This document shows positions 31,606-54,811 of a stretch of 64,000 nucleotides of DNA, piece after piece. The DNA comes from Ulota crispa (lineage: Eukaryota > Streptophyta > Bryopsida > Orthotrichales > Orthotrichaceae): contig OY987251.1 of assembly GCA_963920765.1 (NCBI GenBank), positions 8,187,219-8,251,218 of the forward strand, in the 5' to 3' direction. Position 1 is the first letter of the stretch, and each line of letters starts with the position of its first letter. Below the pieces are notes generated by a model. It worked only from the letters and a program-made list of their open reading frames with translations. It ran no database searches and was not told the origin of the DNA. A program made the position numbers and the translations under genes.

Positions 31606-32586
31606 ATGTGTATGCAAGCACCACTAGTTTTTCTAGGCAAACCCGCGCAGAGTTCCATGAACCTACTGACCATTGATTATAGTACCCAACCTAGTTTTGG
31701 TGGAGGCGGTGATGACCGGATGTTCGAGGAGGAAAAGGAAGATGAAGAAGTAGCACAGCTTCTTGAGCACAATTTGAGGAGGTTGCAAAAGGTGATGCAA
31801 TCGCTACTATTTCAGGTTTGCGTATGAAACCAGAGGCTCTATATCGGCTCAGGGTGCCACTCATCCAACTTGTACCCATGCCTATGGTGAGGCCAACACT
31901 CTCATGCGACCTGGTGAAGCTGGAACATGAATTTGCCCACGGCTATTGTGACAGAGCAGCCATGTTCTACCTGTCCACAACAAATGAAGCAAGAGAGTCA
32001 GTTGAGTTCAATGAATAGGAAATGAGTGCATGGGGACAACTTTGGCAGGACGAGAACAACGCATTCCTCCAATCAATTGCCAGCCATCCAAAGCTAGCTC
32101 ATTTGAAAACCCAGAAGCTATTTGTCTGCAATGGTAACTACAGGAGCATATCATGGATGAACCACATTGACACCCACCACTCACTGGATCCTACCTGGCG
32201 TATCTCAGTCAACTCCATTCTACTGGAAACAAAAGGGCGCAACAAGGTTGTGATGCAAATTATGCATGACATTAACAAGTAAGTGACATATCTTTCTACT
32301 ATAGCTCTTCTGTAAATATTACTTTATTCCTGCAATGATGATATGGGTAATGGTTGTTTTCTAATGAAAGTGGTTGATACGATTGCTTTCCAAGCAGAAG
32401 AAAGACTCACACATTAAGACAAATCTCGTGCACACTCTATATTAAGTCCAAACATATGGGTTGTTACCCATTGAGAAATTCAAGGAGCTCCTTCGACCTG
32501 GTGAGCTCAAACGGTGTACTAAAACATCTACGCGCAAAACTTGGTATACTACACCGGCAGAAGTTTTAACATCATTTATCTTTTGG
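31606..32586 (+). pseudogene. ParB/Srx-like 5' part of a ParB–methyltransferase-type gene
   Basis: Protein-coding blocks on the plus strand: 31606–31775 (acidic, ...YSTQPSFGGGGDDRMFEEE), then after a one-base frame change 31780–32278 (RMKPEALYRLRVPLI, later KLFVCNGNYRSISWMNHI and a hydrophilic stretch ending MHDIN), then about 32405–32586 ending at a GTAGGT donor. The LFVCNGNYRSISW segment resembles the DGNHRxxA loop of ParB/sulfiredoxin-fold domains, where Asp and His are normally present; here they are Asn and Tyr. In-frame stops at 32016–32018 and 32443–32445, plus the frameshift, show decay. It is co-oriented with the methyltransferase-like part at 49354–52773, of which I think it is the 5' half. 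Its function, if it had one, would be DNA binding and base modification. This is inference from motifs. Confidence 0.5.
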
Positions 32587-32712
32587 GTAGGTATCTTACC
32601 TTTTTATATCTAATTCACTGTGAAAAGAAAGTGTAAACAATGCTAGCATGTATTTGACCTTGCCAGCAGAGGTAATGCATACTTGTAGTTTATGGAAAGA
32701 GATACGGTTGTG

Positions 32713-32772
32713 GATGTTGCACCCACCACAAGTACTGTTTGCGGCAACGGTGCTCATGGTGAGTGTAGCATC
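32713..32772. repeat. Left-most palindrome of the array (separated by the CACTA insertion)
   Basis: A 60-bp imperfect palindrome: GATGTTGCACCCACCACAAG pairs with CATGGTGAGTGTAGCATC around a core carrying GCAACGGTGCT. It is the mirror-image partner of the palindrome at 46892–46951, on the other side of the transposon. Confidence 0.85.
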
Positions 32773-32844
32773 CACGGCTAATTTGCAATTTGGAACTTTG
32801 TGTGACATTGTGAAATGTAGGCATGTTCATTTGGTGGCACAGAT

Positions 32845-33900
32845 CACTAGTACAAAAACAGCTTTTTTCAATTGCATTTTGCCAACTACAATATAACTAA
32901 GTTGTGAAACCACTACAAAACAACTGCAAATCACATGACAACTCACAAAAGCAGTTATACAACAAAGGGAGAACTTTAACAACAACCCAATTGTATTGTA
33001 GTTGTATACACAACTACAAAAAACATCAATGCAACTATTGAGGATAGAAAATTTTGTCATCATCAATTTACAATTTAGCCATGGATGCTTTCTGTTCATA
33101 TGGACTCCAGTAACCATTTAAGTACCACCACAGTTGTTTTTTAGTGGTTTAAGCAGTTGCTGTACTACTAAAAAATAACTCCATTGCAACTATTGCAGTT
33201 GTTTTTACGAGTGTGTTTTTTATCTGCTCCATTAACATTTGAGGCTGCCCTTTTTTGGGCAGCTAGTTATGTTCAAATACTTTTGTTTGGGTCTTAGTGT
33301 GAATGCATATTGGAGTTGCTATTGTATGGGAGTTGCAAGCTAGTTGTTGCTGGGATTAGGTGTTACTACAAATCAACAGAAAAACAATTGCACTTGCTAC
33401 ATATTTATTTTTAATTTATTCTTGAATTTCCATCATTACACTTGTTCCTTGGGATCCCTTGTCAAGCCTTAGAGACTATCAAGTGTAGAAATTAGTTTCA
33501 AATTTCACTGTGTGAATAGGGCCATTTTTTTATAGTTGAAACGCAATTGCATTATAGTTGTTTTTGGGTTGGGAACAACTGCTATACAACTATTTCTTGA
33601 CTCAAAAACGACTCACTCCTCCTTTTCTTTCCACACAATTTGTTTCTTTCAGACCTCATATATGGTTTCCTTCTTTCACTCTCCCATTTTACTTCATCTG
33701 CTGCTACTATCCCTCATAGTCTTGCTATCAACTCATTTAGCTATTGCAGTTGTGCTGTAGTTGAGTAGTGGTTGATTAGTAGTTGACTGTAGTCAGCCTT
33801 GAGTCGTTAGTGGGTTTAATGTTTTGGTTGTTTTATAGTTGCATGCTAGTTACTTCTATTGAATAAATAACTAATTACCTACTGCATATCATTTGTTTAT
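32845..33900. repeat. Left subterminal repeat region of the CACTA element
   Basis: Dense short repeats in both orientations of ACAACTACAA, CAACTGCAA, AGTTGTTTT and GTAGTTGT. In En/Spm elements such subterminal motifs are TnpA binding sites. No gene is present here. Confidence 0.8.
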
Positions 33901-34155
33901 GAAAGCAAGTCAAGGAAACAACTTCACTGTCCAATGTTTTAGACTCATCTAGGGGGGTACTCCAAAGTTACTAGAAAAAAGTTTAGGGGTTCATAATTTG
34001 CAATGCAAACACCTTTCTTTGAAATGGTAATCTGTTGCATTGTCACACATTTTTCATAATAGACCTGTCTATCTCAAAAATAAAACTAATACTTAGCCCG
34101 TGCTAGTTCATTCTACTTTGCTGATAATTCTAGAGCGTCCACTAATAAAAGTACT

Positions 34156-37100
34156 CTAGGTTGCTTTGGAAATTGCTGAGGTGTGACCAACCCACTCGGC
34201 TCCGCAGTGGTGGTGATGAAAGCATTTGATGTATTCACCACTTCCCTCTTGGCGCGGAGCTTCTTTTTGCAATATAACTTTCCACCTTGGTTTGTTGTGA
34301 GCGTCTAAAAAAAATACCTGCGTAGCTTGGCTTGGAAAAATAAAAGGGTCCTCCATCTTAGGCAGCTTGTGAAAAAAGTTCACAAGGAGGAAACCGGCCG
34401 CATCCATGATGTAGGTGGTGTTCCCTTTGCCGTCATCTCTCTTCACCCACTCACATTGGAGTAGGATCACTAGCATTTGAAGGCAACCATAATCCAACTT
34501 GAAGATATCCTTCAACACCCCCACATAATTCAGTGTCAAATCATGAAGCCTTGCATTGGGTAAGTGGAATACTGATACAACCCCATTGTCAAATGTCTGC
34601 AAGGTCGCCGTTGACGCATCCTCCTCTCGGTAATGGTTTCCAAAAGCCTTCAGCTTTGAATAACGGGTGGCTCTTTGCAAGGGCTTCTTTGACAACATCA
34701 AGTGATCCATGTGATCTATATTTGTCACATCCACAACAATCTCTTCCATGACCCGTTCCTCCCACTCTTCAAAACACGCTACGCTTGAATTTCCAACCTC
34801 TCTTGCTCCCATTCCTTGCAAGCACAAAGCCAAAATGGTCAGGTGTACTCTGCACATTAGTTCACTAATACTTTACAACACAATTCCCAAATTACTTCAA
34901 GGCAGTACTGTTGTACAAGTGCTCTAAGTCACCCCTTAGTCATTGTCTAGTGGAATTTCAGTTGGATCCAAGTTGAAGAATTCTAGCAGTCATTGATACA
35001 ACTTGTATGCTACTAGATTTGCTATACTGTCCACTCCCTTTACCAACTAGTAATATAGTTGTGTTTTAATTAATAGTGGTTCACATAGACGTTGTAGTTG
35101 TACATACAATTGGTCTACAACGAAGCGTGAAGTATCTACTTCTGGGTTTATATGTTGGGTACTCTAGTTGTCTTGTAGTTGGGAAGCAGTAGTTCCATCA
35201 CTATGAACTACATAAACTTGCTTCTATAAGCACAATGCTACTGTTCATAATGCACTTGGATGATTAGCTTAATATTCTTTGACTTGTTCCACTCGTTCAA
35301 CATGTTTAGAGTTGAGGGCATACACTTACAACAATAGCGGTTGCATGACTGCCATGTTCTTCAAAACATAGCGATGTGTTGTATTGCAAAGTTCCTAGCT
35401 CATGAGGTAGGGTTTACCTAAACCCTCTAGAACCTCCTCTGCATCTCCATACTCCTAATCTGCGTCCCATACCCTCCGCTGCACAACCTCAAATCTCTAG
35501 ATGTACTTTGTAATAAATCTAATGCACTTGTCCTTCAAGTAGCCCTCTGCCATCAACGCCTCCAGTCTTGCCATGTTGCGTACATGGCCCTTGAGTGTCT
35601 TCATGTAACGCTCCATTGGATACATCCACCTTGTTGCCATAGGGCCACACAAGTCCAATTCCTCCACAAGATGATATGACAAGTGCGTCATTACATCAAA
35701 AAAGGACGGGGGGAATTCCATCTCCAAGATAGCCATGCTCTCCGTAACATCTAATTGCAGTGATGGGAACTGCAAAAAGTCATACACACTTATGCAGATA
35801 CGTCTATACACTTTGCACATCCTTGTGACGGCCATCCTTGGGCCGTCTTGCAACAGCCCTCTAAGAGTAAGAGGCATGATTTGTTGCATAAGAACGTGGT
35901 AATTGTGAGATTTCAGTCCTCCAATCTTCTTACCTCTGATGTGTCTTCCCAAATTTGAAGAATGCCCACTAGGTGTCTTCAAGCCTTCAATTGTGCTTGC
36001 AAAGATATTGAACTCTCCATTGGTTAGCATGTATAGTGCCATAGGTTTTATCATCTTTCCTTTGCACCTTGGGTTTTGGGTCAGCCATAGGTGAGGCCTG
36101 ATATTCCCCCTCTCAAATCACTCCTAACCTTCACTGTATCCTTCTTCCCTGTAATTGTCTTCAAAAAATTCTTTGCAATGTTCATCTCACGTTGCATTAG
36201 ATCCAATGTGTAACGGATCAGCAGGTCCTGCATTCAATGAAATTGCAACTGTTGTCATTACACTGGAAATCATAAAAGGACACAAGGATTTAGGGTTTTA
36301 ACATAGGATTCAGTACTTAGCACTAAAAAACTACTACATTGCTATGCCACATTGACTTTACAGTTGCACTGTAGTTGTTTCGTCATCATCTCAGTGAACA
36401 ATCTACTAACTTACTATTTAACTATTGAATCTTATTAATCACTGAAAGTCACAACTGCCAAACAACTACTTAACAACTACTTAACGACTACTTTTTGTTT
36501 TTCAATTGAAAATGCCATTGCAATCTTACTAGCGCCTCTGCACTACTTTGAACAGATGCTCTGAGTATTATTTAGGATACTGAAGTGACTTCTTGGACGT
36601 TTAGGGTTTTTTTATGGGTTGAAACATTGAAATTCAGGGTTGTTTAGAAATCAAAGCCTAACCTTCCAATAAGGGAGCTTATTCAATATTGAAGTCCTCT
36701 TCACGCCATGCACCTAAGAAAGGTTGCCCTCTCTACTTCTAGAGGCTTTCCATACCCTATACTCCTCCGCGAGTCACAATTGCTCCATGGTGGTAACTCA
36801 AACAGGCATTTGTCAATCCTCCATGTGTCCATCAAACCAGTCATTTATATTTGATCTCCATAAGCCGTGGTATGATGGTAGCCATCTCCAAGTATCGCCA
36901 TATACATGCTTTGCCAACTCTATCAAATACTCTACTCCTACTACTGACCCACAAATTACGCACGTAGCATAGCCCTGGTGAGCAAACCCACCAACCGTAC
37001 CGTACCTTGAATAATCGTAAATCGTCCAAAATAATATCGCACGCAAACTAAAATCTCAGCGTCTGACTTCCTCTGCCACATTATATGCGCAAACACCTCT

Positions 37101-38285
37101 CCACAGCTACATCAGCTCCTCTACCAATAGCTCCATGTAATCATCAAACACCTTTGAGGTCACTGTTTATTTACCGGGTATCAATAATGCAAGAAAGACA
37201 ATGAATTTCTTTGTGCTAAGCCATGGAGTAAGGTTATAGTTTAATAATGTAACTGGCCATATTGACCACATTGACCTTGTGTGCTGAAATGGATTCACTC
37301 CATCAGCAACAAGAGCAAAGTGAATGTTGCGCACGTTTGCACAAAAAGTGGAGTCCACTACTGTGTGGAAATGTCTCCACGCCTTTGAGTCACACGGATG
37401 TCGGACAAGATTGTCTTTGCCGTCTCTGTTGCTTTGGTTCTCATTGTGCCACCTCACTAACTTAGAGATGATTGGGCTGCAAAACTTGCGCTGCACTTTG
37501 GATATCAAGGGAAAGTGTCGCAACACCTTCACCGGATAGATCTTCCGTACTTGGTCTCGAAACTTGGGTGCACCACACTTGAAGCACTATACTGCCTCTG
37601 CATACTCCTCACAAAATAAAACGCAGCCACTCCCACAAGCGTGGATAGACTTGTAAGAAAACCCCAACTTACTTGTGAGGGTCTTAGCAATGTAGTAATT
37701 GTATGGCAAAGTGTTCTTCGTGGGAAGGAGGTGCCTTTGCAGCAGGGTGAACAAGTCATCTGCAAAATTATTGCTCGCTCCATGAACAGTATAAATATTC
37801 ATGAGGAAAATAGTTGCAGTAAGCTTTGTATATCTCAAACCTGCGTACAGCGGTCTAATGACATTCTTTAGATCCCTGGCCGGAAACGTGTCATCAACAT
37901 TGACATCTCGATTGTTGTCACAGACTGTCTTGCCATCCTCTGATAAGGTGCGGTTCATGTCTCCGCTGGTATGAATGTCGTCACCTAAACCAAATGCCTC
38001 TGCCGTTTCTTCTCTCACACGTTCCTCAACATGCCGTTAAACCATGGCCTTAGAATATGCGTCATTGACCATACCCCATGAATCAACCGTAGCATCAACT
38101 TTGCCCTCCGTTACTATAGCTTGTTTGTCCAAAACCTCCTCCCAATCATTTTCGAATGCGTCACGTTCATCTAGCCCCCTCCAAACTCTGAACTCCGGTA
38201 CTCTCCCATGATCATTCAAGTGTTTTTTTATTGTTCTCATATGGCACCTCCTTGTCCCTCTACACATATAACATAGACAATGCAA
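34156..38285 (-). pseudogene. TNP2-type CACTA transposase (TnpD-like), decayed
   Basis: Minus-strand blocks follow the usual TNP2 order. The N-terminal Cys-rich part (CYMCRGTRRCHMRTIKKHL, 38037–38285) comes first. Then come TATIFLMNIYTVHG and LGFSYKSIHACGSGCVLFCE (37587–38018) and CFKCG, RHFPLISKVQRKF and FALVADGVNPF (37167–37586). Next are RAILFWTIYDYSRYGTVGG and HQGYATCVICG (about 36813–37060), a DUF4218-like domain with LMQQIMPLTLRGLL, EFPPSFFD and RWMYPMERYMKTLKGHVRN (35497–36054), and a DUF4216-like end with FKLDYG and SQATQVFFLD (34156–34857). In-frame stops at 38037–38039, 37587–37589 and 37167–37169 and further breaks near 36.2–36.7 kb mean it cannot be translated through. It would have cut and pasted the element by recognising its ends. 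Confidence 0.9.
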
Positions 38286-40004
38286 TTAGGTTGTGTTGAA
38301 GAACGTTGCTCTTTTAACTTCTCTTGACCATAGCCTCTCATCCTTAAAGCATATCATACAAGCATTAGAAATAGGCAATTTGTGCACATCCATCTTCTAT
38401 CTACACTTAGGAAGACATCAAAAGTTAATTATTCATTGCTAAACCAACACTTAGACTGTTGTTGATTTAGAACCTCAAAATATAATTACAGTTTCACTGT
38501 AGAACAACTCAAATGTTACTATAATATGACTCTAGATTATAAACCAGTGATTCATGACTAACATACAACTAGTTTTCAACAAGTGGAAGTAAAACAATAG
38601 TTCTGACCATTGCCTTTCGACTCTACAACTTGGTCGTTCTTACACAGAAGGTCTTAAAAATAAAAATCCTTTCTTTCCTATTCCTTCACCATTTCTATCC
38701 AATTTTGGACAAAATGTAACAATATACATTTGGGTAATTGACCCTGAATTGCTGAACTTCCAACAATTGTGCCCATCTCTTAGCTAAAATTGCATCTTCA
38801 TCGTTGCTTGTGTCTAATGCGGGGTCCAATATCAAAATGTTGCATTGCATTCAACTTGACAATGGAAAATAACTACAAGAATGGAGAATAAGGTAAGAGT
38901 ACTAACAAATTCTTCTATGATGTAAGAGTAGCTGTAATTGCATTTGTATTAGTGCCTTTGCAAGTTCAGAGAGAGGGATTGTAAGCTTCCTCTTATATGA
39001 GGACTGCCACCAACCTGCAGTTGTACAGTACAATTGCATATTGACAATAAACAACTCCAAGGTCACTACAGTTCAATTGAAAGCACAACTAATCCAATAA
39101 TAACTACAAAACAATTGCTATTCAACTCATACGATAAAAAAAGTAGTTTAAACGACTATAGTTCAACTCAAACTCATAATCGTTTGTGCACCAAAAATAT
39201 TTGAAGCAACTTACCTGCCTCTGCTGTCTTCTCTCCGCCTCCTAGCATTTTTGCACGCATAGAGATAGCTGAAATTTGGGTACCTTCCATACCCTACTCC
39301 AACTCCTCCAATGTTGTTGCTACCTCACCATCTTCATCTGCACTCTAATTCAAATTTGTGTGAACAGTAGGATCCAATTTGTGATCCTAGAATTGCAAGC
39401 AATTTGGCAATGGAAACTCACAATTTCAATGAGGAAGGTGAGAAGAGTACTTACAAAATGCTTAAGAATGCAAGAGTTGCTGAATTGGCATTTGCATTGG
39501 GTCCAATGCTAGGTGCAAGTTAGGAATTGTAAGTTTCCCTCCTTCATTTTTTGAATATTCGACACTGTTGCAAGCGACGCCGCCATGTTGCTATGAAGCA
39601 TTAAATGCTTCAATAAGTAGCGACATCAGTCATTTTTGACTTGCCAAGTTGTTTTTGAGTTGTTTTTGGTTACTGAGTTCTTTCTAAGTTGTTCCTTAGT
39701 AAATTTGTAGTTGTTCTTTACAGTTACATAGTAGTTCTAGTGCAATTGTTTTGGTCGAATTCTACTCCTCCTAATCCGAAAAGCGTAAGTGAACTCTTCA
39801 TCTTCTCAACTCTTTTGCAAGAAATTGGGTTTGGGGTATTGCTCTGTTTTTCATTGGCTTCAGGGTTTTTCATGCAGGCGTTTAGCACTGAGGCATAGGG
39901 GAGGGTCCCGCCCTGCTCTTAGAAGCGCACAGAAAGGGGGATTGCCTACAGGGAAGAGCTGTTGTCTGTAGATGGGATGCGGTGACCATGCGGTTGGAGC
40001 GGTG
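38286..40004. other. Spacer between the two CACTA genes, with a diverged duplication
   Basis: No gene. A segment at about 38870–39005 resembles one at about 39405–39540 (both contain a GTAAGAGTAC-like word, AATTGCATTTG/GGCATTTGCATT and GGATTGTAAGCTTCC-like words), a ~140-bp diverged direct repeat. Many CAACTACA-type short repeats occur. The 5' end of the TNP2 gene and its promoter must lie in this interval. Confidence 0.5.
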
Positions 40005-40145
40005 CAAGGAGGGAGCGAAGCATCGGGAGTGGGCGGAGCGGCGGTAGTGGGCAGAGTGCCAGGAGGGAGCGGAGCATCTAGAGTGGGCTAAGCGGCAATT
40101 GGCAAAGTGCTAAGAGGGAGCCGAGCATCGGGAGTGGCAAGAGGG
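40005..40145. repeat. GC-rich ~52-bp minisatellite, about 2.7 copies
   Basis: Units start AGGGAGCGAAGCATCGGG, AGGGAGCGGAGCATCTAG and AGGGAGCCGAGCATCGGG, each followed by AGTGGGC-rich sequence. It stands out as a GC-rich block in an AT-rich element. Its position upstream of the plus-strand gene could make it a regulatory region. Confidence 0.75.
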
Positions 40146-40469
40146 AATTGTTGCGCCATGCCGCAGCAGGAGCGTGTCACGGTCGCTATGAACTCCGCAA
40201 CCAAGAGTACCAAATCGCTATACAACTTAGACCTAGTTTCTAAAAGTACCCTCCGTTGTAGAATTCTTACTCTAGCAACACCCTACGTGATCAACGATTG
40301 ATAGTGAATTTTGGTATCCTGCAAATGATTTAGAGTTTACGACTCTAGGAATTTGTGTACTATAGGGATTGGTTAATTTGCTTATGGAGCTGTCCTACAA
40401 CCGCAAGTAGCAGCTTGATCAAGCCAAAGTGATGCTGAAATTTTTTAAGAACTATTTGGATTGGATTGG

Positions 40470-42360
40470 ACAAGTTTTGCTTGCTTTTTCTAATTGCAGC
40501 CTTTGCTAGTTGAGGGCCCGGAGGCAGGGCACCTTGCGTAATCAATGCTCAATTCTCTCAAATTATCAAATTTTTTTAGTTCTAGATTAGCCTGCTTACT
40601 TTGTTTGATGGCAACCTCGGTCAATGAAGGGCAAGGAGGTAAGGGCACCCCATGTGATCAAGCCAAGGGTGCTGGTGTCAATGCTGTCAATTGTTTAGTC
40701 TTGTTATTTGTACAGAAGTTTGCTTGCTTGTTTGATCGAAGACTCTCCTTATTGCAGGGTTCAGGGGGGGGCACTCGCGTGATCAACATTTCAATTCTCT
40801 CCTTTTTTTTATATTTTGTTATGTGTACACAAGTCTACTTGCCTTGTTTGATTGCACCCTCGCCTGGTGAGAGGTCCAGAGGGGCACCATGCATGATCAA
40901 CATCTCAATTTTGTCAATTTTTTTTAAGTGCACAAAAGTCTGCTTGCCTTGTTTGATTGCAGCCTCGCTCAATTATAGGTCCGGAGGGGTCAATCCCGTG
41001 ATGAACATCTCAATTCCTTTTTAAATTTTTTTTTATTATGTGTACAGAAGTTTGCTTGCCTTGTTTGATTGCAGCCTTGCTCAATGAGGGTTCTAGAGGG
41101 GCACTTGCCTTATCAACATCTCAATTCTGTCAATTTTTATTTTTATTTTTTAAGTGCACAAAAGTCCGCTTGCCGTGTTTGCTTGCAGCCTTGCTTGTTT
41201 ACAGGTCTGGAGGGGTCAATCTTGTGATGAATTTCTCAATTTTGTGCAATTTTTTTTAAGTACACAAAAGTTTGCTTGCTTGTTTGATTGCAGCCTTGCT
41301 CGATGAGGGGTCCCAAGGGGCACTCGCCTGATCAACATCTCAATTTTGTCATTTTTGTTTATTTCTTAAGTACACAGAAGTCTGCCAGCCTTGTTTGATT
41401 GCAGCCTTGCTCGTTGAGGGGGTTAGGGGGGGGAGCTCTCTCGTGATGAACGATTGAATTGTCTTGGTTTTTTTTATTTGTTATTTGTATACAAGTGTGC
41501 TAGCCTTGCTTGTTTGATCAGAGACTCTCCTTGTTGCGGGGTTCACGAGGGGGACTTGCGTGATCAACATCTCATTTTTTTTATATATTTTGTTATGTGT
41601 ACAAAAGTCTGCTTGCTTTTTCTAATCGCACCCTCGCTTAATGAGGGGTCTAGAGGGGCACCATGCATGATCAACATCTCAATTTTGTCAGTTTTTTATA
41701 TTTTTTAAGTACACAAACGTTTGCTTGCCGTGTTTGATCGCAGCCTTGCTCATTTACAGGTTCAGAGGGATTAGTCCCGTGATGAACATCTCAATTCTAT
41801 CAAATTTTTTTTTAGTGCACAAAAGTCTGCTTACTTGTTTGATTGCAGCCTGTGCTTGTTGAGGGGGTTAGAGGGGGGCTCTCTTGTGATGAACATCTAA
41901 ATTGTCTTGTTTTTTTGCTTTGTTATTTGTACACAAGTCTGCTTGCTTGTTTGATCGCAACCTTTGCTTGTTGAGGGATTTAGAGGGGGCACTCATGTGA
42001 TCAACATCTAAATTCTCTCTTTTCTTTTCTTTTGTTATGTGTACACAAAACTGCTTGCCTTTCCTAATCGCACCCTTGCTCGATGACGGGTCCAAAGGGG
42101 GCAGTCCCGTGATCAACATCTTGATCCTTTCAATTTTTTTTTTCTTTTGTTATGTGTACACAATCTCCTTGCTTATTACACCCCAGCCTGTGCTTGTTGA
42201 GGGGTTTGGAGGCAAGGCACCCCATGTGATCAAGCTAGGGGTGCTCATGTCAATTATCTCAATTTTTTTATTTTGTTGTGTGTAGACATGCTTTTCCTGA
42301 TTGCAGCCTTGCTCGACAAGCGAGCCTCAAAGCATGAGCACCCCTCGTGATGAACCATTG
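40470..42360 (+). repeat. ~110-bp tandem minisatellite, about 17 copies
   Basis: Each unit carries CACAAAAGTCTGCTTGCC, TTGTTTGATTGCAGCC, a GAGGGGTC(C/T)(A/G)GAGGGG segment, then GTGATCAACATCTCAATT and a T-rich stretch. Unit starts occur about every 100–130 bases between 40490 and 42288. The T-rich stretch followed by TTGCAGCC looks like a repeated splice-acceptor context. The open frames with repeated CLPCLIA peptides are by-products of the repeat. Confidence 0.9.
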
Positions 42361-42449
42361 GTGCTGCCACAATTCATGTGTCTCTCTTAGAAATTGCTTC
42401 TTGGAACATCTGTGTTGTTGGCTGATATTTTTGTTACCATTGTGTAGGG

Positions 42450-45400
42450 ATGCAAGATACACCAGAGGGCAACGAAGTGGCCACCGAGGACGAGTTCAAC
42501 TTGGACAATGAGGAGGAGGAAGAGGAGGGGTTGCCCATGCAGTCACTTGGGACGTTGAAGTTGGCAGAACGTTGGCAAAGGTTGATAGATCGGAATGTCT
42601 CCAATGTTCATGCAAGTGGTGCAATTGAACACCAAAAGGGGCTGGGGGGGTCCTCTAGAACAATCAACGCCCTTGATGACATGGAGCTGGTACCAAAACG
42701 CAAGAGAAGATGTGTATCAGATGCCGCGTTGTATGGCAACCGCCTCATGGGGGAGAAATCCTATTGCATTATGCTTCTCAAGGGTGGGGAGATAGACACA
42801 CGAAGCCAGGGCAAATCAGACTGGGACATGGTGATGCGGACACATGCGCCGCGCACTTTGGACGTGAGCCGCATGATGTGGAAGGACCAGAAGAAGGAGA
42901 GCGTGGACAGGCTTTGGTCTATCATGAACTCTGAGTTCTACTTTGATGGTTTTCCACTCAATGACGTGGGTTCAAGAGGGCAATGTTGCGTTTCTTGAAG
43001 GGCTTCAGGTCCTCCCTAAAGACCTTATTCAAGAAAGACAAGTTGCAGTGTCCTCGCACTATAGAGCCTCCTGAGTGGGAGCTCCTTCTCACCTATTGGA
43101 GGGCAAAGGAAACTCATCTAAAGGCTAAGAAAATGACCAACGCAAGGAAGCTTGTGAAAATGTGTCCAAAGTGGGATGCAAGGGGCTCTCATCAGAGAGT
43201 TGCCTGGTGAGTTGAGCATACCTTTAAGTCCAAAGATTGTGTACTTTATGCACTTTTTTAAATTCTTTACTAACTTGTTGTGTTTCACTATAGAAGCATA
43301 AACAAGCAACGAAGAATACCATGGGAGGCCCAAAGATCTCTGGTGCTAGTGAGTAGCTAGAGTCGGTAAGTTGCAAGTTTTTGGTAAGTTTCAATGCTAG
43401 GTTAGAGGTAGTTAGTGTTGTGGCATTGTGTTTAGGTGTTTGGATGTTTTTGTGTTGCATTTTAGGGTGAATTGGAGTGATGCACAAGGGCTAATTTTTC
43501 CAATGTAGTGTTTGGTATAAGTTTTTGGAGTTCTTAATTGTTTAGTGGTTGTGGTTTGAATGAATTTGATGAATTAGTTTAAGTGTTGGTTGTATTCTTG
43601 TTTGCAAGTTTTTGGTGAGTTTCAATGCTAGGTTAGAGGTAATTAGTGTTATGGCATTGTGTTTAGGTGTTTGGGTGTTTTTGTGTTGCATTTTAGGGTG
43701 ACTTGGAGTGATGCACAATGGCTGACTTTTGCAATGTAGTGTGTGGTATTAGTTTTTGGACTTCTTAATTGCTTAGTGGTTGTGGTTTGAATGAATTTGA
43801 TGAAATGATGTAATTAGTTTAGGTGTTGGTTGTAATGTTGTTTGTTTTTATGCTTGATTGCAAGTTTTTGGCAAGTTTCAAAGGTAGGTTAGGGGTAACT
43901 AGTTTCATGGCAATGTGGCTGAGTGTTTGAATGTTTTTGAGTTGCATTTTAGGGTGAATTGGGGTGATGCACAAGGGCTGACTTTTGCAATCAAGTGTTT
44001 TGTATGGGGCTGATGAAGTTTTGTGGTTGAATGCCTTACATGTTAACTGTGAATGGTGCAACTTGTGTAGGGAATGTCAGAGTAGGTGTCTACTTGGCAG
44101 GTGGTTGCAGATAAAAGACAGGATGGCTTTGAAGCAGCTCTTGCACAAATTTTGAAGGCCATAGCAGCAAACACTACCAGCATTGTGGAGTTAAAGGCAT
44201 TGATGACATCCTCTACTAGTTCTGTGGTCCCGATCATTTTCGGCATGGTAGGTGCAAGCTTGACTAATGCGGGAGTTCATGTGGTTGAGATTCCCATGCA
44301 AGCACAAGGTGACAAAGACCCTTATGATTTTCCACAGAAGCCCCCTTCAAAAACCACCCAAAGAGGCATTGGCGCTGTGACTCAAAAGAGGGGCAAGGAA
44401 GCTGTAGTGGAGGAGGCCCCCATTGTTGTCCCTACTATGGTTAGTGCAACTTCTGGCCTTTGAAAATCTGAGGCTGAATGATGTGCTTGTGTATGCTTGT
44501 AGTGGTTGTTTAGTTTTGATAAATCCACCCCTAGTTGGCCACTGTTGCATTGTAGTAGTTAATTGATAGCTAGTTGTATATGGTGAGTTTGAGTTCTTTT
44601 TGAGTTGAACCTGTGTTGAGTTTGAGTGGCTTTTGTTGGCAAGAGTTGTTCTACAGTAGATTTGTGATTGCCATTGCAGTGGTGTTTGGATTGAACTTGT
44701 GTTGAGTTTGAGTAGTTTATTAGTTGGGATTGTAGTTGACAGTAGTAGTTTTGCGGTAGTTTCTTTATTGCCATTTCAGTTGTATTTCAATTGAACTTAA
44801 GTAGTTTAGTATGCTGACGATGGTAAGTTTGGATTGTGCATCAAGAGTATTTAGAAAATGTTATTGATGTACACTTAACTAGTGGTTTGTAACTGCTGAT
44901 TGTATCCATAAATGGAGGATGGAGAGACCCTGATACAACAAAGGAAGAGTTCAAGTACTGTTGCAGCGACCACCTCCACTGCAGTCAAGGTGAGAAATAG
45001 AACGCAAAGGTGTATATAGTTGAGTTTTAGAGAGTACTGCAAAATGCAATGTGAACCTGTTTTGACCAAGTTTTTTTTTGTACAGGTGAAGGAAAAGGAG
45101 GCAAAAAAGAAGGCACTAGCTACAACTCCCAAAAAGGGTGCTAAACCTTTGGCAAAGGTAAGCCTTGCCCTAAATCATAATAGTAGTGATGAAATTAAAT
45201 GTTCTCCACTCCACTGACCTTCTGTCATTGTTTATTTCAGGTATCTGTGGGAGAGAGGATTTGGCTTCTAAACCCCGCTGATGCAGACATGAAGGTAGCA
45301 GTAGGAATTGTCAGTGCTGTTGCAGGTGGACTCACTCACTCTTGCAATATAGAGGAAGGTTGGTGCAAGGTGGACATTGCTGAGGTCCTTGCGCCAAATG

Positions 45401-45504
45401 TAGAACTCATGCGTCCCAACAGCATGGATGATCAAGTTTACATTCATGATGCTATGAAGACTAGCACTAATTGGGAGGTTAGACATGTCCTGACAGGAGC
45501 TTAA
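42450..45504 (+). pseudogene. Ptta/En/Spm second gene of the CACTA element (TnpA-like)
   Basis: Plus-strand blocks: 42450–42975 (acidic EEEEEEG start, later RTHAPRTLDVSRM and DGFPLNDVGSRG), 42976–43210 (MLRFLKGFRSSLK, WELLLTYWRAKETHLK, ending in a GTGAG-type donor), 44080–44440 (a coiled-coil-like helix), and 44915–45504 (a Lys-rich linker, then VGERIWLLNPADADMKVAVG and a short beta-rich end). The W...YW(R/K) block matches the plant Ptta/En/Spm transposase family. The end resembles the domain that often follows it. A one-base frame change near 42973 splits the family block, and the third block has no clean start. The product in intact elements binds subterminal repeats and assists TNP2. I rate family membership high but intactness low. 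Confidence 0.75.
43370..44040. repeat. ~245-bp tandem repeat, three copies, in an intron of the second CACTA gene
   Basis: Copies start GCAAGTTTTTGGTAAGTTTC, GCAAGTTTTTGGTGAGTTTC and GCAAGTTTTTGGCAAGTTTC at about 43372, 43609 and 43860. All include GTGTTTAGGTGTTTG-like and GCATTTTAGGGTGA segments. Confidence 0.85.
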
Positions 45505-45689
45505 GGACACACCATTTGATTTACAATACCTAGGCTCTAATTATGTAAAGGTAGGGAAAGGTAGGATGCAAACATAGCGCAATCCTCTCTTGTAATAAGT
45601 GTTTTTCTCCCCTCCTGTACAATCCCTACTCTAATATGTTGTTGATTCCCTAACGTGCTACTGATGCACAACTTCTTCACCACCCTTGT

Positions 45690-46816
45690 GCGGCTACCTT
45701 AGGACCTCTTGGCAATTGCATATGAACTGAATTTTGAATGTGAGAAGGCTTAATTGTGTTTGAATGACAACTCTGTGGCAACTGTAGCGCAACTCAACTA
45801 TATGGCAGGTGCACCTCCAATACAACTCAACTGCAACTTCTTTGCAAGTGAAATCCAATTCTATTGCAACTACAGTACAACTGAACCCTAAACAAACAAC
45901 TCCATTGCAACTAAGGTGCAATTTTTTTGTAACTAAAGCTCAACTTTAGTGCAACTAAAGTACAACTCGATTGCAACTAAAGTGCTACTATAATGCAACT
46001 TGGATGCAACTGTATTTTGATAGAGGTTCAACAAAATGTGAACTGAATGCCACTAGGGTGACTTTTAGTGCTGACTAGGATACAACAGCGTTGCAATTGG
46101 TTAATGGTATGAAACCGCTGACATGCAACTAATTTGCAACTGAAAAGCATGATAGGGGAAATTCAAGTACAACTAAAGTACAACTTTAACTCTGAAGCTA
46201 CACTATATTGCAGTTGTGCTGTACTACCCAAAAAGAGTGAAGAGTCCCAGTTGTCGTAAAATTGACTATAAATCAACTGCATAACGACTAAAGATCAACT
46301 AGTGTAAAAGTGGTCTGAGTTATAAGTGAGCTTTTTCTACTAAAAAAATATAAACAACTGCAAAGCAACTACTTTACAACTAATTTACAACTAATTTACA
46401 ACTGCTTTACAACTGCAAGGGACACGTGTCATTGTGGATTATCAATTTCACATTTCATGAAATGGCCTAAAACTGACCAGAACCTCTAAAAATATGAAAA
46501 GTGGCACCTGCTCATTTGTGTGTTAGATGTGCTTTAATGGAAACATAGGGATTAGAGAGAAAGATGTCTTCTAACAAAGAAGAAAGAAGTAGAGGAGGCA
46601 GGTTTTTCCCAAAATTTAGGGTGGGCAATGGATGAAAAGGTGGCAATTGTTTTTGAGTAAATGGCAAATGTGACAAGTTCACTATTACTAGCATGCAACT
46701 ATGGTCAATTGAAGAACAACTGCAGCCCATCTAGTTGTACGTGAGTAGTTTCAAGCCATAAACAACTAAAATGTAGTCGTTAAGTGTAGTCGTTTTTTCC
46801 CCATTTTGTACTAGTG
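45690..46816. repeat. Right subterminal repeat region of the CACTA element
   Basis: Dozens of short direct and inverted words such as GCAACTAAAGTACAACT, ACAACTCGATTGCAACT and TTTACAACTAATTTACAACT. This mirrors the left subterminal region. No gene is present. Confidence 0.85.
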
Positions 46817-48982
46817 GATGCGTGCGCCACCAAATGAGCGTGCTTGCATTTCACAATGTCACACAAAGTTCCAAATTGTAGACTAGCCGCGGATGCTACA
46901 CTCACCACAAGAATTGTTGCTGCAGACGGTACTTGTGGTGGCACACCTATCAGTGGCAGGAAGCCAATGCATTTTGGTCAAGCATGCAATGCGTAATGAT
47001 AATTCAAAATTCCTTCATGTAAAGAGCGGTTGCTTAAAGCACCACAAGCAACATTGCTGGCGATGTTGCTCGTGGTGCTTTAAGCAATCGCTCTCCAAAT
47101 ATGCATGAGGATAGACATGAGGGACATTGACACAAAGAGGCAGGGATGGGCGTGCCAACGGAAGCACCGTCGCCAGCAACGGTGCTTTTGTTGGCACGCC
47201 AATGCCTACCTCCTCTTGAATGCATTACAATCAAAGTAGTCATTTATTGAAGTCCTGTTGCACATAATAGCGGTTGCTTAAAGCACAACAATCACAATTG
47301 CCAGCAACGGTGATTGTTGTGCTTTAAGCAACTGCTACTATGTACAACATGATTGCAATTTGTTACAAGCTTAATAGACATGCATTCGCGTCCTCTTGTG
47401 GATGGGTATGCCACAGGAAGCACCGTCGCTGCTAACGGTGCTCCTGGTGGCATATCCATCCGTGGCAAGACTCGAATGCATGTCCATCAAGCATGCAATG
47501 CTTAATGGTATTTTAAGATGCCCTCACATAGGGAGCGGTTGCTTAGAGCACCACAAACAACGTTGCTAGCGATGTTGCTTATGGTGCTTTAAACAACCAC
47601 TTCCTGAATATGCATGAGGATAGCCATGAGTGTAATGCATGCACAAAGAGGCAAGGATGGGCGTGCCAAGAGAAGCATTGTCACCGGCGATGGTGCTTCC
47701 ATTGACACGCCCATCCCTGCCTCCTTGTGCGTGCATTTTAATCAAACTAGTCTAAACTTGCAATCTTGTTGCACATAGTAGCGGTTGCTCAAAGCACAAC
47801 AATCACCATCGCCGGCAACAGTGATTGTTGTGCTTTAAGCAACCGCTACTATGTGCATTAGGATTGCAATCTTTAACATTGTGGAATGCTGGCTTTTGAG
47901 TCCTGCCATGGATGGATATGCCACCAGGAGCACCGTCACTGCTAACAGTGCTTCCGGTGGCATACCCATCCGTGGCAAGATGCAAATGCATTTCATAAAG
48001 GAAGCGGTTGCTTAAAGCACCACAAGCAACGTCGCTGTCGACGATTCTTGTGGTGCTTTAAGCAACCGCTCTTTGAATATGCATGAGGATTGCCACAAGT
48101 GACATTGACACAAAGAGGCAGGGATGGGCGTGCCAACGGAGGCACCATTGCTGGCGACGGTGCTTCCATTGGCACGCCCTTCCTTGCCTTTTGATGAATG
48201 CATTGCAATTGAAATAGTCATGACTTATAATAGTATTAGCAATAGCAATGGTTATTTAAAGCACAACGAACATTGCCGTTGGCGACTGTGCCAGTCTTGC
48301 TTTAAGCAACCATTGTTATGTGCAATAGGGTTGCAATCACTAACAATGATAACATGCTGGCCATTAGAACATGGCACGAAGGGGCATGCCAGTGGGAGTG
48401 CTGTCATCGCCGACAGTGCTCTTGATGGCATGCCCATCCATGCCATGTTCTCAAGGCTAGTATGTTTTTATTGTTGTTGATTTTTCATATTGTCAGATAT
48501 AGTTGCCGTTGCTAAAAGCACCATGAGCACCGTCACCGGTGATGGTGCTAATGGTGCTTTAAGCAATGGCAACTATATCTGACAATATCATAAATCATGG
48601 CACGCCTTTTGGAAATGAACTTGAGCGCTAACATGCATTATTGTGTTTTGCATGCCTTCAAAAGTACCAATGCCGGCCTCGTTGCTTCCGATGGCTTGCT
48701 TGTTGGTGCCATGTGCCAGCAAGGTGGTTTTTTGGCTCACACATTGTAATCTTGTTGCAAATGTTAGCAGTAGTATGCTTGTGGTATTTGAAGCAACTTT
48801 TAGTGCTCTTGATAAACCTAAAATCCTCTGTTGCTTAATGACCTTAAAATAGCACAAGGGCTGCCTCACAAGGTGGTTTTATTTGAGATTAAGGTCATAT
48901 GATTTTCATAATGTTGCCGTTGCTTAAAGTACTACAAGGATGGTCGCCGGCAACGGTGCTTGCGGTGCTTTAAGCAACAGCA
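46817..48982. repeat. Array of about 15 alternating imperfect palindromes
   Basis: Palindromes of 60–102 bp lie at about 46892–46951, 47024–47092, 47143–47210, 47262–47343, 47399–47462, 47533–47601, 47655–47716, 47771–47856, 47905–47976, 48002–48071, 48116–48190, 48242–48319, 48367–48450, 48487–48588 and 48914–48982. Two classes alternate. Class A has outer arms AGCGGTTGCTTAAAGCAC and a CAACAATCACC- or CACAAGCAAC-type inner arm. Class B has outer arms GGATGGGCGTGCC or GGATGGGTATGCC with an inner GAAGCACCGTCGC. Four palindromes make a ~470–510-bp higher-order unit, repeated about three times. The spacers are also conserved (for example ATATGCATGAGGAT and CAAAGAGGCAGG). No protein frame explains them, and each could form a strong hairpin in RNA or single-stranded DNA. 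Confidence 0.9.
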
Positions 48983-49353
48983 AGTATGTGCCAAATGAAC
49001 TGGATGTAGTTAGTGTGTATTTGTGATGCCTTCTTATGGTTGCTCTGACATTTGTGCCAGTCTGCCTTCACGATTTTGTGTATTCTGACACTCATTAGAT
49101 TCACTTTTTTGTATTTTGTCCGATGCTAGTCAGACTATGAGTGTCACCTCCAATGATGGTCCTGGTTGTGTGTTAGGCTAGCGATGTTCTTTCAAATTGA
49201 CCTTTATTTCTAGAATCTTGAAATTTATTATGCTATCCCTCAAATTATATGCGGGTTTGTGCGTTGTTTCCTTGTAAATTTGTTTTTTATTTGACATGTC
49301 AGTCATTTATTTTGGGGGACTGAAGTAGACGTCATTTTAATAGTTTTGTACAG
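48983..49353. other. Spacer between palindrome array and next exons
   Basis: No repeat or gene recognised. It ends in a good pyrimidine-TTTGTACAG acceptor at 49353. Confidence 0.5.
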
Positions 49354-52300
49354 ATGGAATCATCGTCTGTGAGTTGTTATATGTTGATCTTGTTTACTAT
49401 TTTTTTTGGACTCCTTCAATAAGACATGTCTGCGGCTGCGGATCATGCCTTGCGGAAATATATGGAGGCCGCAACTATAGAAGACAAAACAACTAAACAA
49501 ATCGCAAATGCAATGCGCAAAGGTGCAAAGGAGAAGGAAAAACTGCTCCTTTTAAAGATGTCAAAACTCTTGTCTGTGGCCAACCCCGAGAATGGCAAAT
49601 CATTTCTAGCAAAGGTATGTTTCTATCAATGGACCTCAATTTCTTTATATTCTTTCCTTTTTTTTTGGTTTGTATTGACTAGGTTTATGATCATAGGTTG
49701 AAACACATTACAGCTCCAACAACACAATGGAGATGAGTTTAGAGAAACTTCAAATTGTATTGACATGTTCCACTTCTATCTATCACAAGATTAAATTTTT
49801 GAAGTTGTGGAATTCATCTCTCCCCTCTTGTGAAGCCAGGCGATTCCCTCCTCGCCCCGTGGTTGATGATCTACTTAAAGGGTTTTTGAGAAAGTGTGTT
49901 TGGTATGCAAGGGTAATGACAAAGCTTCCTGTTTATATTGATTTTCTCATCTTCATTTATTGCCTTTATGGTTTGTGCAACCTTTGCTTGAGATATCTTT
50001 TCAAGAACGTTTGCTTAATAGCTTTGTTCTAATTTGTCTGCAGATCAAAGATGCTGCTGTGGCCTTTTTTGACAATGTGGTAAAGAAAGACAACGTTTGT
50101 GTTGATATGTCAATACCTCTGGAGGTTGAGACTCTTCTGGAGTATATTGAAGGCTGGTGACGCAAAATATGAGACTAGGGTTTCCTGTGTTACCTTTGAG
50201 GAGCAAACAATTTTAAGAGGACTGAGAGCTTCAGCAACTTTGAGGGCTCCAAGGAGGCAATTTGTAGGGTCCTCTTTTGGTATAGATGCTAAATCCTAAT
50301 TGTTGGTGCTACTTCATTCAATTACTCACACATTGGGCTTCAAGGAATGTCAAATTTGGTTGGTTCATTTTTTTAGCTGCTTTTGTCAATTGCTTAAGTT
50401 TAATTTATCAACAGCTCTCCAGCAACTATACTGGGCTTATATGTTAATGGTGTTTGCTTTATGTGCTCTTAGCATTGTGGCAACATGATTATAGTGGTCA
50501 TTGTATTGACACAAGTTTATTTTGAGTTTGTGTTTTTGGTTGCTTTTCTATTTTTGTATTTCAGGTACATCAAGCATGAACTCCTTGGGAAAAACGCTAT
50601 CACTTGTGACTTTCTACCTCCCTTTTTGAGCACTTGGCTAGACCGTACCTCCTCTGATTGTATGTTTACTGCAACTCAGCTAAAGACATACACCACGGCT
50701 CAGTTAGATAGTGGGGCTTGGTTTTTAGACACTCCTTTAGAGTTTACTCACCCTCTAGAGACGGCTTTGCGCAAATCATTAGAGGAGGTAGGGGCAATTG
50801 ATTTGGTGGTACCTCAGTTTGCTAGGTTGGATGACAAAGCAAAGGCCAAGGCTATTGAAAAGCGAGCAATTGCTGACACTAAAAAGCAATTCAAGGAAGT
50901 TAACGTCATCAAGCTGAAGGTAGCCAAAGAGGTGGAGAGGAAGAAGACAGCTGCTAAGCATGCTGCCAAGAAAGAGAAGGGGCCGAAAACTCGGGGAAAG
51001 GCTGTTGTAGCCATGGACCTCCCCCTTCTTGCAGCATCTCCTGGAACCATTATGGGAGCTCGCTCCCAAAATGTTTGCAAGCGGAAGAGCACTTTGATTG
51101 AGCTTACTGATGAAAAAGACAACATCCTCCTAGGCACAAATGTCATACCTACAGATTCTATTGCTAATGCAAATGTGCAGGAGATGATCCTGAACATGTC
51201 AATGTGCGACTTGGTGGACAATATGGACCTGGACGGCCCAAACAACTTCACGGATGTCTTGGACTTCCTACAAAAGGTATTTTTGCTTTTTGATTTTAGG
51301 GATATCTATAGTCTTTGCTCTTCTTTATTTTGTTATATTTCTTGCAATATGTGGCAGTTCTCAGCCTTGCCATTTTGCATTTGCAAGTCGCTGAGGTGAA
51401 AGAACGGCACTTAGCAGGAAAGTTGGACGCTGATGCTGTTGTGGACCTTATTTTGGTAGATTGCCCAGAGAATCTGCTAGTCCCAATGATCTCTACCTTT
51501 GCAACAGATATTCCTACGTGGAATTTGGACAAAGATCATGAACTTTTGAATGCAGCATTTGCCTTTGCCAAAAACATGTGCATGATGATGGTGCAATGGT
51601 AGTTGTGCATTTATTCAACATGACATCCAAGTCTTGTATTGCAAGACTTTGCAAAATTCTATGCTATGGCAGTGAAGAAAGAGTGGCAAGCAGTGAACAA
51701 TCTGCATTTGACGTCTGCTATTAACACCTCCATAATTGTAAGTATATTTTTTGGCAATCCCTTGTATTGAAGTTTTTGTTTTGTCAGAAGTAGGTCCACA
51801 TTCAAATTACGATAAAACTTTGTTGTATTGCAGACGCAGAAACTCAGGGTTACTTTGTTGGTGAAAAACTTGGGGCCAAGCAAAGAGTCTAAGTTTATTT
51901 TCCACTACACGGAGGCAATGGCGTCACTGGGTGGTGAAGTTGGGTGAGGTTATGTGCTTTTAAATGTTGTTGATTTGCACAATTTGGCGGTTCATGGCTC
52001 CAACCCTTAGAGAGGACCTCGGGAGAAGGGAGGTTGCTTTTATCAGCGACTTATTGAAGGCACTATAGTTCATGAGGATGTGATAGTTGACTATACTGCA
52101 TCCACTGGTTAGTATCCATTTTATTCCTCTAATTCATTGTGCTCATTTTTTGTCAATGTAATTCTTGTATATCATGCTGCTTGTTTCTCTTTCCAGGAGC
52201 GTCCATTGCAGCTTGCTGTAGTAGTGGACGTAGTATGCTTGCGCTAGAGGCAGATGAGGCTTTATTTGAGGCTATACTCAAGCCAATGATCCAGCCTTCA

Positions 52301-52773: not shown

Positions 52774-54338
52774 CATTTCAAATTTTTCATATGTTTAGTG
52801 GGGTTCTCTATGTTTTTGGATTTACGCATTGTCTAGAATTTTGTATGTTTCTGTTTCATTTTATGAGCATAGTATCTTCTTGTTTTTTTTTCTTTTACTC
52901 CCATGTTCTTTGAATCTGTTTGTTACATATGGATGCATGTTTATATTGAGCTCTCATTTTTTACACATTTTTTTCTAAACTCTTTTGGTAAATCATCTTC
53001 AGTATTACTCTCCCTTAAAATCACCCTAAATCCACAATCATAGGTTTCCTCTCCATTTGAATTCACTATAAATCCACAATCATAGGTTCTTGCTTATCAT
53101 TTTTGAGGTAAAAAGTTCTCGCTCACAAGCTCACAGGCTTGCCTGCTAGCAACCCTGCTACAAAAATCTGGTTGAATCAAATAATGAAAGTAGAAAACAT
53201 AAAAGCTTAGGTAGCATGCTCAATGACAATATAGCAATATTGAGCTTTTCTATAAACATGCTTTGTTTTCACTTCGTTTCTCCTTGTTGAAAATGAATAT
53301 ATTGAATAACAAGTACAACATGAAAAATAGGTGAAATTTCTAATAACAAATCATTTTCAAATTTTGAATTATAAACACTTTGTGGTAATTACGAGTGTGT
53401 CATGTTTTGTCTATTTATACCGTCTACATGAGTACCACGCGTTTTGTCTTGTATCTTGTACATTTAGTTTCTAGTGAATATATTGTGTTTGTGGTTTATG
53501 GTGTTTATGTCTTTGACTTTGTTAAGTTTTTGTGAGTTTCTTTTGGTTAGATCTACAATCACATTCCATGTTCAAGAAAATAATATATTTTATTGTTTTG
53601 AAGTTGCCTAGGAATTTTTGCAAAAAACTTATCTCTCTATTTAATTAATTAGAAAAAATCAATATATGCTCAATAATGCTATGTTAAAATATCCAAATCC
53701 AAAATATCAATATTGCATGTTTTGCAAGGTTTGCATGCAAAATTTGATTGATCACATGTTTACACTCTGGAACATGTTGTGAGAATCCACAAATGTTTGA
53801 CATCAACAAAATGTAAAAATGAAGAAGTTTGAAACATATGCATTTACAAGATTTTGAATATTCATAAAGCATTTGAACTTACTCAATCTTCTAACTGAAA
53901 TGCTTTGAATGGACGAATTAACTTTTAGATGCACCTTGGTATGCAAAAGTATTTTAATGAAATATGTACAAAATAGTAAAGATTCTTGGAATGTAAGTGG
54001 AATGTGCAAGTACGCACACTATATGAACCATGTAAGAATCAAAATTTCAAAGTGTAACTACTAGTTTTCACTAGGTACATTTGAAAATGTGACCAAAATG
54101 TGACTTTACAATGAAGCAAAGCAAAATTAAGCAACGTTTAGCTAGCCAATGCACATTTTGGCAACAAAATTCATCCATTAGACAAATACACAAAATTTAG
54201 TTAGCTAGGTGATTGACATCAAATGTATGCCATAATGTTGTACTACCATCAGAGATTTTCTCAATTTGAGATTTTAGATCTATAAAAGAGAAGTTCACTC
54301 ATCCCAGGTAGCCATAAAAATTTCCCTTGTTTTAAAAT
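52774..54338. other. Intergenic AT-rich, nothing recognised
   Basis: Contains a short direct repeat of AAATCCACAATCATAGGTT (about 53030 and 53075). No gene is supported. Confidence 0.5.
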
Positions 54339-54668
54339 GGGAAAATTTCATGGATATCCCTAAGGTTTGCAATAATTTCCTAGATACCTTTGGTTTTTCA
54401 GAAATTTCACAAATACTCTTGGAACAAAATTTTCAAGCGTTTTTTTTTTTGTTGTGTATGCCACTTCCCTTCTCCCTTTGTGCACACCCTAACAAGAGCA
54501 CTACTTCTTTCTTGTTAGTGGGTGCACAAAGGGAGAAAGGAAGCAGTATACATAACAAAAAAACTCTTGAAATTTTTGATCCAAGAATATTTGTGAAATT
54601 TCTGAAAAAGCAAGAGAGTATCTATGAAAATATGACAAACTTCAAGAATATCCATAAAAAATTCCTTA
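54339..54668. mobile_element. MULE-type MITE, family M, copy e
   Basis: Starts GGGAAAATTTCATGGATATC and ends ATATCCATAAAAAATTCCTTA. The perfect 10-bp flanking duplication GTTTTAAAAT is at 54329–54338 and 54669–54678. Internal inverted arms meet around 54500 (CACAAAGGGAGAA and its complement). Confidence 0.9.
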
Positions 54669-54811
54669 GTTTTAAAATACAACCGGTTTTATACAACACA
54701 TTTGTTTTAGACAACACCAACATCTGAGGCCCAATTAGATCTCTTAAAATTTGGAAGGACTGCTTATAACTGGGTCTCAACTGTCGATCTCGCCTAAATA
54801 ATGTACGTTGG

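What the first reader, a model, noticed from the sequence alone, without database searches (positions are those of the whole stretch)
46817..48982. Higher-order array of about fifteen alternating hairpin-forming palindromes
Seen: two classes of 60–100-bp imperfect palindromes alternate, four per ~500-bp unit, with conserved spacers and recurring CACCGTCGC/GCAACGGTG-like cores. One (48487–48588) is nearly perfect over 102 bp. Mispairs are often matched by compensating changes in the other arm (CAAC with GTTG, CCAC with GTGG). This is not a standard MITE tandem, satellite or CRISPR pattern. Possible roles are hairpin small-RNA precursors, protein-binding palindromes, or a rolling amplification of a foldback element.
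Basis: seen in the sequence. Interest (0 to 1): 0.85.

Follow-up and report, generated by a model that had tools for sequence, protein, structure and literature searches.

The report
Palindrome arrays inside a transposon intron
The fifteen-odd hairpin-like repeats fill an intron of an old jumping gene, and the other copies examined carry arrays of the same design but different spelling in the same intron, which suggests fast-changing landing sites for a protein.

Summary
About 15 palindromes (67-90% paired) alternate in two classes over 46.8-49.0 kb with a ~510-bp four-unit period; one more lies at 32.7 kb, cut off by a later 14-kb CACTA transposon (32845-46816, target duplication GAT). The array is not a free-standing locus: it fills a phase-0 intron of a gene in a multicopy mobile element; a later exon looks methyltransferase-like by eye. 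All 11 further element copies that I chose by exons alone have palindromes in this intron, with different sequences; three more copies were found through their palindromes. Over 14 introns the units share a two-box half-site (GCGGnTG ... AGCACCnTYGCC, then its mirror image); other positions differ between families but stay symmetric. G.T and A.C mispairs are equally common (139, 150): no sign of selection on RNA stems. Symmetric changes separate unit subclasses; later changes look random. Best reading: arrays of dyad DNA sites for a dimeric, probably element-encoded protein, renewed by tandem amplification, resembling the VANC target repeats of Arabidopsis VANDAL elements. The anatomy is well supported; protein binding is inferred. 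This copy is decayed.

The parts
46820..48991 (+). Main part of the palindrome array: about 15 units, two classes, four-unit period of about 510 bp
48478..48597 (+). Best single palindrome, 54 of 60 arm positions paired
32710..32775 (+). Unit of the same array left of the CACTA insertion (24 of 33 paired)
32845..46816 (-). CACTA transposon inserted in the array; ORFs on the minus strand match DUF4216, DUF4218 and Transposase_21
32842..32844 (.). Left target-site duplication GAT (right one at 46817-46819)
32587..49419 (+). Inferred phase-0 intron of the element gene that holds the array (about 2.86 kb without the CACTA); acceptor lost in this copy
   Evidence: no transcript data
32019..32279 (+). 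Element exon L (112 matches in the genome)
32386..32586 (+). Element exon E2, ending FIFW before GTAGGT (84 matches in the genome for an E2 probe)
49429..49614 (+). Element exon R (52 matches in the genome)
50473..51396 (+). Open frame holding a later exon of the same gene (65 matches in the genome for a relative's exon)
51381..51599 (+). Exon with methyltransferase-like motif (LILVDCPEN), by eye only
   Evidence: no profile support
53137..53155 (+). Conserved right-end motif of the element, GCTTGCCTGCTAGCAACCC (111 genome hits, control 3)
23892..27485 (-). Pieces of the divergent upstream gene A, probable RNase H-type transposase

Best explanation
The array is the content of one intron of an accessory gene in a multicopy DNA transposon, probably of DDE/RNase H type and perhaps Mutator-like. 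SHOWN by sequence: the 14 introns tested have palindromes above all shuffles; families share two boxes per half-site, GCGGnTG some 26-32 bp and AGCACC some 6-12 bp from the axis; symmetry is kept although other positions and the spacers differ between families; units multiply by tandem duplication; this copy is a relic. INFERRED: each palindrome is a double-stranded DNA site for a dimeric, two-box-reading protein, most likely encoded by the element, and the array gathers that protein on the element, for instance to keep it expressed and unsilenced, as VANC proteins do through fast-diverging tandem repeats in introns and other non-coding parts of VANDAL elements. New specificities would be fixed by amplifying a new symmetric unit.
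For: Palindromes in the same intron in 11 of 11 copies chosen by exons alone and above 15 of 15 shuffles in 14 of 14 introns. Conserved intron borders: GT at the expected donor in 11 of 14, AG at the acceptor in 11 of 15. Shared boxes with several positions above 1 bit, falling to near 0 outside. Pairing uneven along the arm, 0.95-0.97 at k 4, 8, 10, 27 and 28 but 0.47 at k 3. G.T 139 vs A.C 150 mispairs, so symmetry is not that of an RNA stem under selection. Palindromes concentrate in the intron, 0 comparable axes in 12 kb and 4.9 kb of other element DNA. VANC21 target repeats lie in introns of VANC21 and VANB21 and diverge between copies (PMC5735166, passages).
Against: No binding, methylation or expression data. 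Palindromes are no better conserved than spacers among the C1, C5 and C6 copies. L087 shows no within-unit excess, B and C units neither. Most units were found by their pairing, so the cross-family double-change count (108 vs 27 in shuffles) shows symmetry, not compensatory events. No reader protein is identified; Pfam gave nothing for the array-bearing gene. The element is not shown to be Mutator-like.
Confidence: 0.5

Rival explanations
1. The palindromes act as RNA: hairpins in the element's pre-mRNA that feed Dicer, occupy silencing enzymes, or steer splicing of the intron.
For: They lie in an inferred intron in sense orientation and fold very strongly, z -4.9 to -15.2 in six of six tested. 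Arrays of hairpins as small-RNA genes are known in Drosophila (hpRNA loci; search listing only).
Against: No excess of G.T over A.C mispairs on the sense strand (139 vs 150 in 58 units; 20 vs 21 in the class-A units). Boxes are conserved at fixed distances, also at k 2 near the axis, where a hairpin would have its loop. No Rfam match at gathering thresholds.
Confidence: 0.22
2. No function: palindromic units arise, symmetrise and multiply by replication and repair (hairpin-templated conversion, slippage), a satellite tolerated in a transposon intron.
For: Four-unit tandem duplications; palindromes diverge as fast as spacers among C1, C5, C6; arms change together between subclasses but hardly within them, as expected if symmetry is made at unit birth and then lost.
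Against: Presence in the same intron in 11 of 11 copies chosen by exons, and boxes shared between families whose spacers no longer align, are hard to explain without constraint or a common ancestral array; the latter is not excluded.
Confidence: 0.22
3. Nested foldback elements or MITEs inserted one after another.
For: The window holds several foldback elements of about 270-420 bp.
Against: The array's arms are not dispersed: up to 1 mismatch, 9 of 9 genome hits lie here; a 587-bp array query matched 12 places here and 3 short ones on C6. Spacing is regular.
Confidence: 0.04

Closest known systems
VANC target repeats of VANDAL (Mutator-like) transposons of Arabidopsis (PMC5735166, passages read; PMC10398659, abstract and outline)
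   Same: Tandem repeats in introns and other non-coding parts of a transposon's own genes, differing widely between related copies, in an element with a transposase gene and accessory genes
   Different: VANC motifs are 8-9-base words (YAGTATTAY, AGTTGTCC/AGTTGTAC) and the paper does not use the word palindrome; here units are about 70-bp palindromes of two boxes spaced about 107-200 bp apart, in a gene with methyltransferase-like motifs; no VANC relative has been shown
Subterminal repeats of CACTA and other DNA transposons (recalled)
   Same: Clusters of short repeats in both orientations as protein sites
   Different: Internal, in an intron; the element that has CACTA ends in this window is a different, later insertion
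Drosophila hpRNA loci (search listing only)
   Same: Several long hairpins in a row
Higher-order satellites (recalled)
   Same: Diverged monomers in a multi-unit period
   Different: Short, confined to an element intron, and each monomer is itself a palindrome

Membership tests
VANDAL/VANC system | Tandem target repeats in non-coding parts (introns) of the element, diverging between copies | tested here: met
VANDAL/VANC system | Mutator-type (MURA-like) transposase gene | tested here: inconclusive
VANDAL/VANC system | No terminal inverted repeats | tested here: inconclusive
   Right end found, no inverted partner in the window; left end not located
VANDAL/VANC system | VANC-type anti-silencing protein | not tested
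   No VANC sequence was compared; Pfam gave no family for the array-bearing gene
VANDAL/VANC system | Protein binds the repeats and removes DNA methylation | not testable with these tools
   CpG o/e higher in intron than exon side in 14 of 14 copies, but the boxes contain CpG
hpRNA / microRNA cluster | Selection for RNA pairing (G.U tolerated) | tested here: not met
   139 G.T vs 150 A.C mispairs
hpRNA / microRNA cluster | Small RNAs made from the hairpins | not testable with these tools
   no reads available
MITE / foldback element tandem | Dispersed copies in the genome | tested here: not met
   arm and core hits only at element loci of this family
DNA amino-methyltransferase (array-bearing gene) | Recognisable methyltransferase domain | tested here: inconclusive
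   motifs by eye, altered DPPY (DCPEN, DIPEG); no Pfam or solved-structure match; model pLDDT 48

The most novel reading that the evidence does not exclude
A plant-type DNA transposon lineage carries, in one fixed intron, a self-recognition array of two-box palindromes read by its own protein, possibly the methyltransferase-like product of the very gene that hosts the intron, with an altered catalytic motif. Array and protein would co-evolve so fast that each element family has its own code: a counterpart of VANC anti-silencing, evolved independently and built on dyad sites.
Probability: 0.2. Interest if true: 0.85.

Novelty: new variant of a known kind. Interest (0 to 1): 0.68.

Why it matters
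A non-coding structure that keeps its place and design while its letters turn over points to a co-evolving reader. If there is no reader, it is a clear case of palindromes that spread and become symmetric without selection.

Tried and rejected
Rfam scan of the window: no match at gathering thresholds. tRNA scan: none. Plasmid BLAST: no match. First thought that the array is the subterminal region of the CACTA element: rejected, since its ends and target duplication exclude the array; its right end carries 11-bp CAACTAAAGTG-type repeats. Inverted left terminus of the array-bearing element: not found. Protein search with a middle exon: 140 candidates, none at E up to 1. Solved-structure searches of gene A and the methyltransferase-like exon: weak, unrelated rows only. 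Foldseek for gene A: nothing at E 0.001 or better; VIA-align listed mainly integrases and transposases, with a few unrelated enzymes among them, below the level that would prove kinship. Paper searches for palindromic repeats in transposon introns found nothing to the point in the held open-licence library. The C1:29629 array lies upstream of a weak E2 match (E 7.9e-4) whose frame does not read like the same exon: counted as doubtful. My first arm shuffle of class-A units was misplaced by one base and redone; its B and C figures stand. Half-site positions are shifted by one against (position p there is k = p+1). Host: plant-like eukaryote, 275 Mb in 157 contigs; I suspect a moss from recall only; a paper search did not settle it.

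Full report
OBSERVATION. The sequence at 46.8-49.0 kb is as described. Fourteen clear palindromes and a weak one follow each other with axes mostly 116-129 bp apart. Class A units (GCGGTTGCTTAAAGCAC...) alternate with class B and C units (GGATGGGCGTGCCAACGG..., GGATGGGTATGCCAC...), four per 509-511 bp with one shorter step of 467-469. The best axis score in the intron, CACTA removed, is 61.6 against at most 13.0 in 15 dinucleotide shuffles. Six tested units fold at -39 to -81 kcal/mol, z -4.9 to -15.2. Only 2 axes of score 15 or more occur in the other 61.4 kb of the window.

CACTA INSERTION. Three of its ORFs match DUF4216, DUF4218 and Transposase_21. Sequence left of it, from 32723, is the reverse complement of 46820-46941 at 85%. 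With the flanks joined, the insertion point is the symmetry axis of a spacer palindrome (76 of 88 paired), and one more unit lies to the left, axis 32742.5.

WHERE THE ARRAY LIES. The core GCACCACNAGCAACGTYGCNGGCRACGTTGC with up to 3 mismatches hits the genome 30 times, all at four loci on C1, C5, C6 and here on C10; the reversed control gave 0. Around all four lie the same two coding pieces in the same order and orientation: exon L upstream and exon R downstream (for C1 by the alignment). Exon L has 112 matches in the genome, R 52, an E2 probe 84 and a later exon 65, a good part of them with stop codons: a multicopy, largely decayed mobile element. A right-end motif, GCTTGCYTGCTAGCAACCC, has 111 hits against 3 for its control. 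The left end was not found.

IT IS AN INTRON, by sequence. In the 14 copies where E2 is held, GT stands at the expected donor (after FIFW or its like) in 11, ten of them resembling GTRAGT or GTATGT. In the 15 copies with R, AG stands at the acceptor before CAA GAA GTA TCT GCT in 11; the other four have AA there. Both borders are in phase 0. The window copy has lost its acceptor and has a stop codon in the next codon, so it is a relic. No transcript data were available.

EVERY COPY EXAMINED HAS PALINDROMES THERE. Eleven copies were chosen by exons alone: C6:1655561, the best L match after the window, and ten of the more than twenty L-R pairs a few kb apart. All eleven have palindromes in this intron, one to about seven units, with quite different sequences. 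With the window, C6a and C1 (found through palindromes) the best axis beats all 15 shuffles in 14 of 14 introns, the weakest being L085, 14.0 against 7.8. C5 also carries arrays, rearranged, with two copies 1473 bp apart. Spacing is about 107, 117, 128 or 200 bp by family. Outside the intron, held element DNA shows 0 axes of score 15 in 12 kb and in 4.9 kb, and 1 in 5.1 kb.

COMMON DESIGN. With 14 arrays weighted equally, the half-site reads roughly GCGGnTG ... AGCACCnTYGCC towards the axis; eight positions exceed 1 bit and information falls to near 0 beyond the palindrome. Pairing is uneven along the arm: 0.95-0.97 at k 4, 8, 10, 27 and 28, but 0.47 at k 3 and 0.59 and 0.66 at k 12 and 13 (58 units). 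Positions with little shared information (k 17, 20, 22, 23, 25) still pair at 0.83-0.93. One unit for each of 11 families gives 108 double-change cells against 27 with sd 9 in shuffles, 0 of 5000 reaching it. These units were chosen by pairing, so this says that each family's unit is symmetric in its own letters; it does not count compensatory events. A genome scan with AGCACCTTYGCCGGCRAAGGTGCT, up to 3 mismatches, found 75 sites, control 0. Of 16 clusters among the roughly 50 sites listed, 12 lie within 7 kb of an element marker, 1 is doubtful and 3 have none in my lists, which were themselves cut (with 33, 35, 52, 53, 92, 95). One of the 12, C5:6574779, was fetched: array, last exon and right end are there, the middle is missing.

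COMPENSATION. For the eight class-A units, chosen by direct-repeat similarity, arms match at 0.816 within units and 0.738 with arms shuffled (P 0.0003); shuffled only within subclasses 0.792 (P 0.083). Three B and three C units show no excess. In arrays with units found by pairing, P is 0.001 (C6b), 0.003 (C10 class A), 0.004 (C6a), 0.03 and 0.04 (L081, L082), 0.17 (C1), 0.22 (C10 class B) and 1.0 (L087, both classes). I read this as symmetric change at the birth of a unit type, amplification, then neutral decay. In agreement, palindromes are no better conserved than spacers among C1, C5 and C6 (five comparisons, 0.755-0.824 against 0.786-0.842), which is also a result against present function in those copies.

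DNA OR RNA. In sense orientation G.T mispairs (139) do not exceed A.C mispairs (150); other mispairs number 85. Selection on an RNA stem should favour the former. CpG o/e is higher in the intron than on the exon side in 14 of 14 copies, once by 0.01 only; the boxes contain CpG, so this is weak.

MECHANISM. The most economical reading is an array of dyad DNA sites for a dimeric protein that reads two boxes, carried in an intron so that it travels with the element. VANC21 targets in Arabidopsis VANDAL elements behave alike: tandem repeats in the introns of VANC21 and VANB21, changing quickly between related copies and bound by an element-encoded anti-silencing protein (PMC5735166, passages; PMC10398659, abstract and outline). 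What differs is the palindromic, regularly spaced two-box unit and the kind of gene. Binding, reader and effect are inferred. A self-symmetrising satellite without function and a role as RNA remain open.

LIMITS. One genome; no expression, methylation or small-RNA data; most units picked by pairing; the element's left end and class unsettled; paper library limited to open licences.

Noticed in passing
32842-46819: A 14-kb CACTA transposon with 3-bp target duplication GAT inserted at the symmetry axis of a palindrome in the array.
   Followed up: yes
L017:3728-3937 (C6:14864727-14864936): An exon of a voltage-gated chloride channel gene (Pfam PF00654, E 1.2e-15) sits between palindromes of the C6 array: a captured gene fragment.
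   Followed up: partly
25455-25904 (minus strand): Piece of gene A: a family with 280 database relatives at E up to 1 and no Pfam name, modelled as RNase H-like.
   Followed up: partly
51381-52413: Exons with methyltransferase-like motifs whose catalytic letters are altered; ten relatives of unknown function in the protein database.
   Followed up: partly
5936-6348, 13288-13699, 14387-14797; 3947-4217, 15618-15932, 54330-54677: Two families of foldback elements (about 412 bp and 270-350 bp), each copy matching its own reverse complement.
   Followed up: no
L093 (C1:29629300-29632900): Another array of the same design with two unit classes, in front of a reading frame that does not look like the E2 exon.
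   Followed up: partly
C5:22715544-22720532: The C5 array occurs in two near-identical copies 1473 bp apart within a larger inverted repeat of 85% identity.
   Followed up: no
40768-42143 and 43371-44005: Two tandem arrays (units of about 112/219 bp and 231 bp) inside the CACTA element.
   Followed up: no
12037-12335: Degenerate 10-bp tandem repeat TTTGAGAATC, about 29 copies.
   Followed up: no
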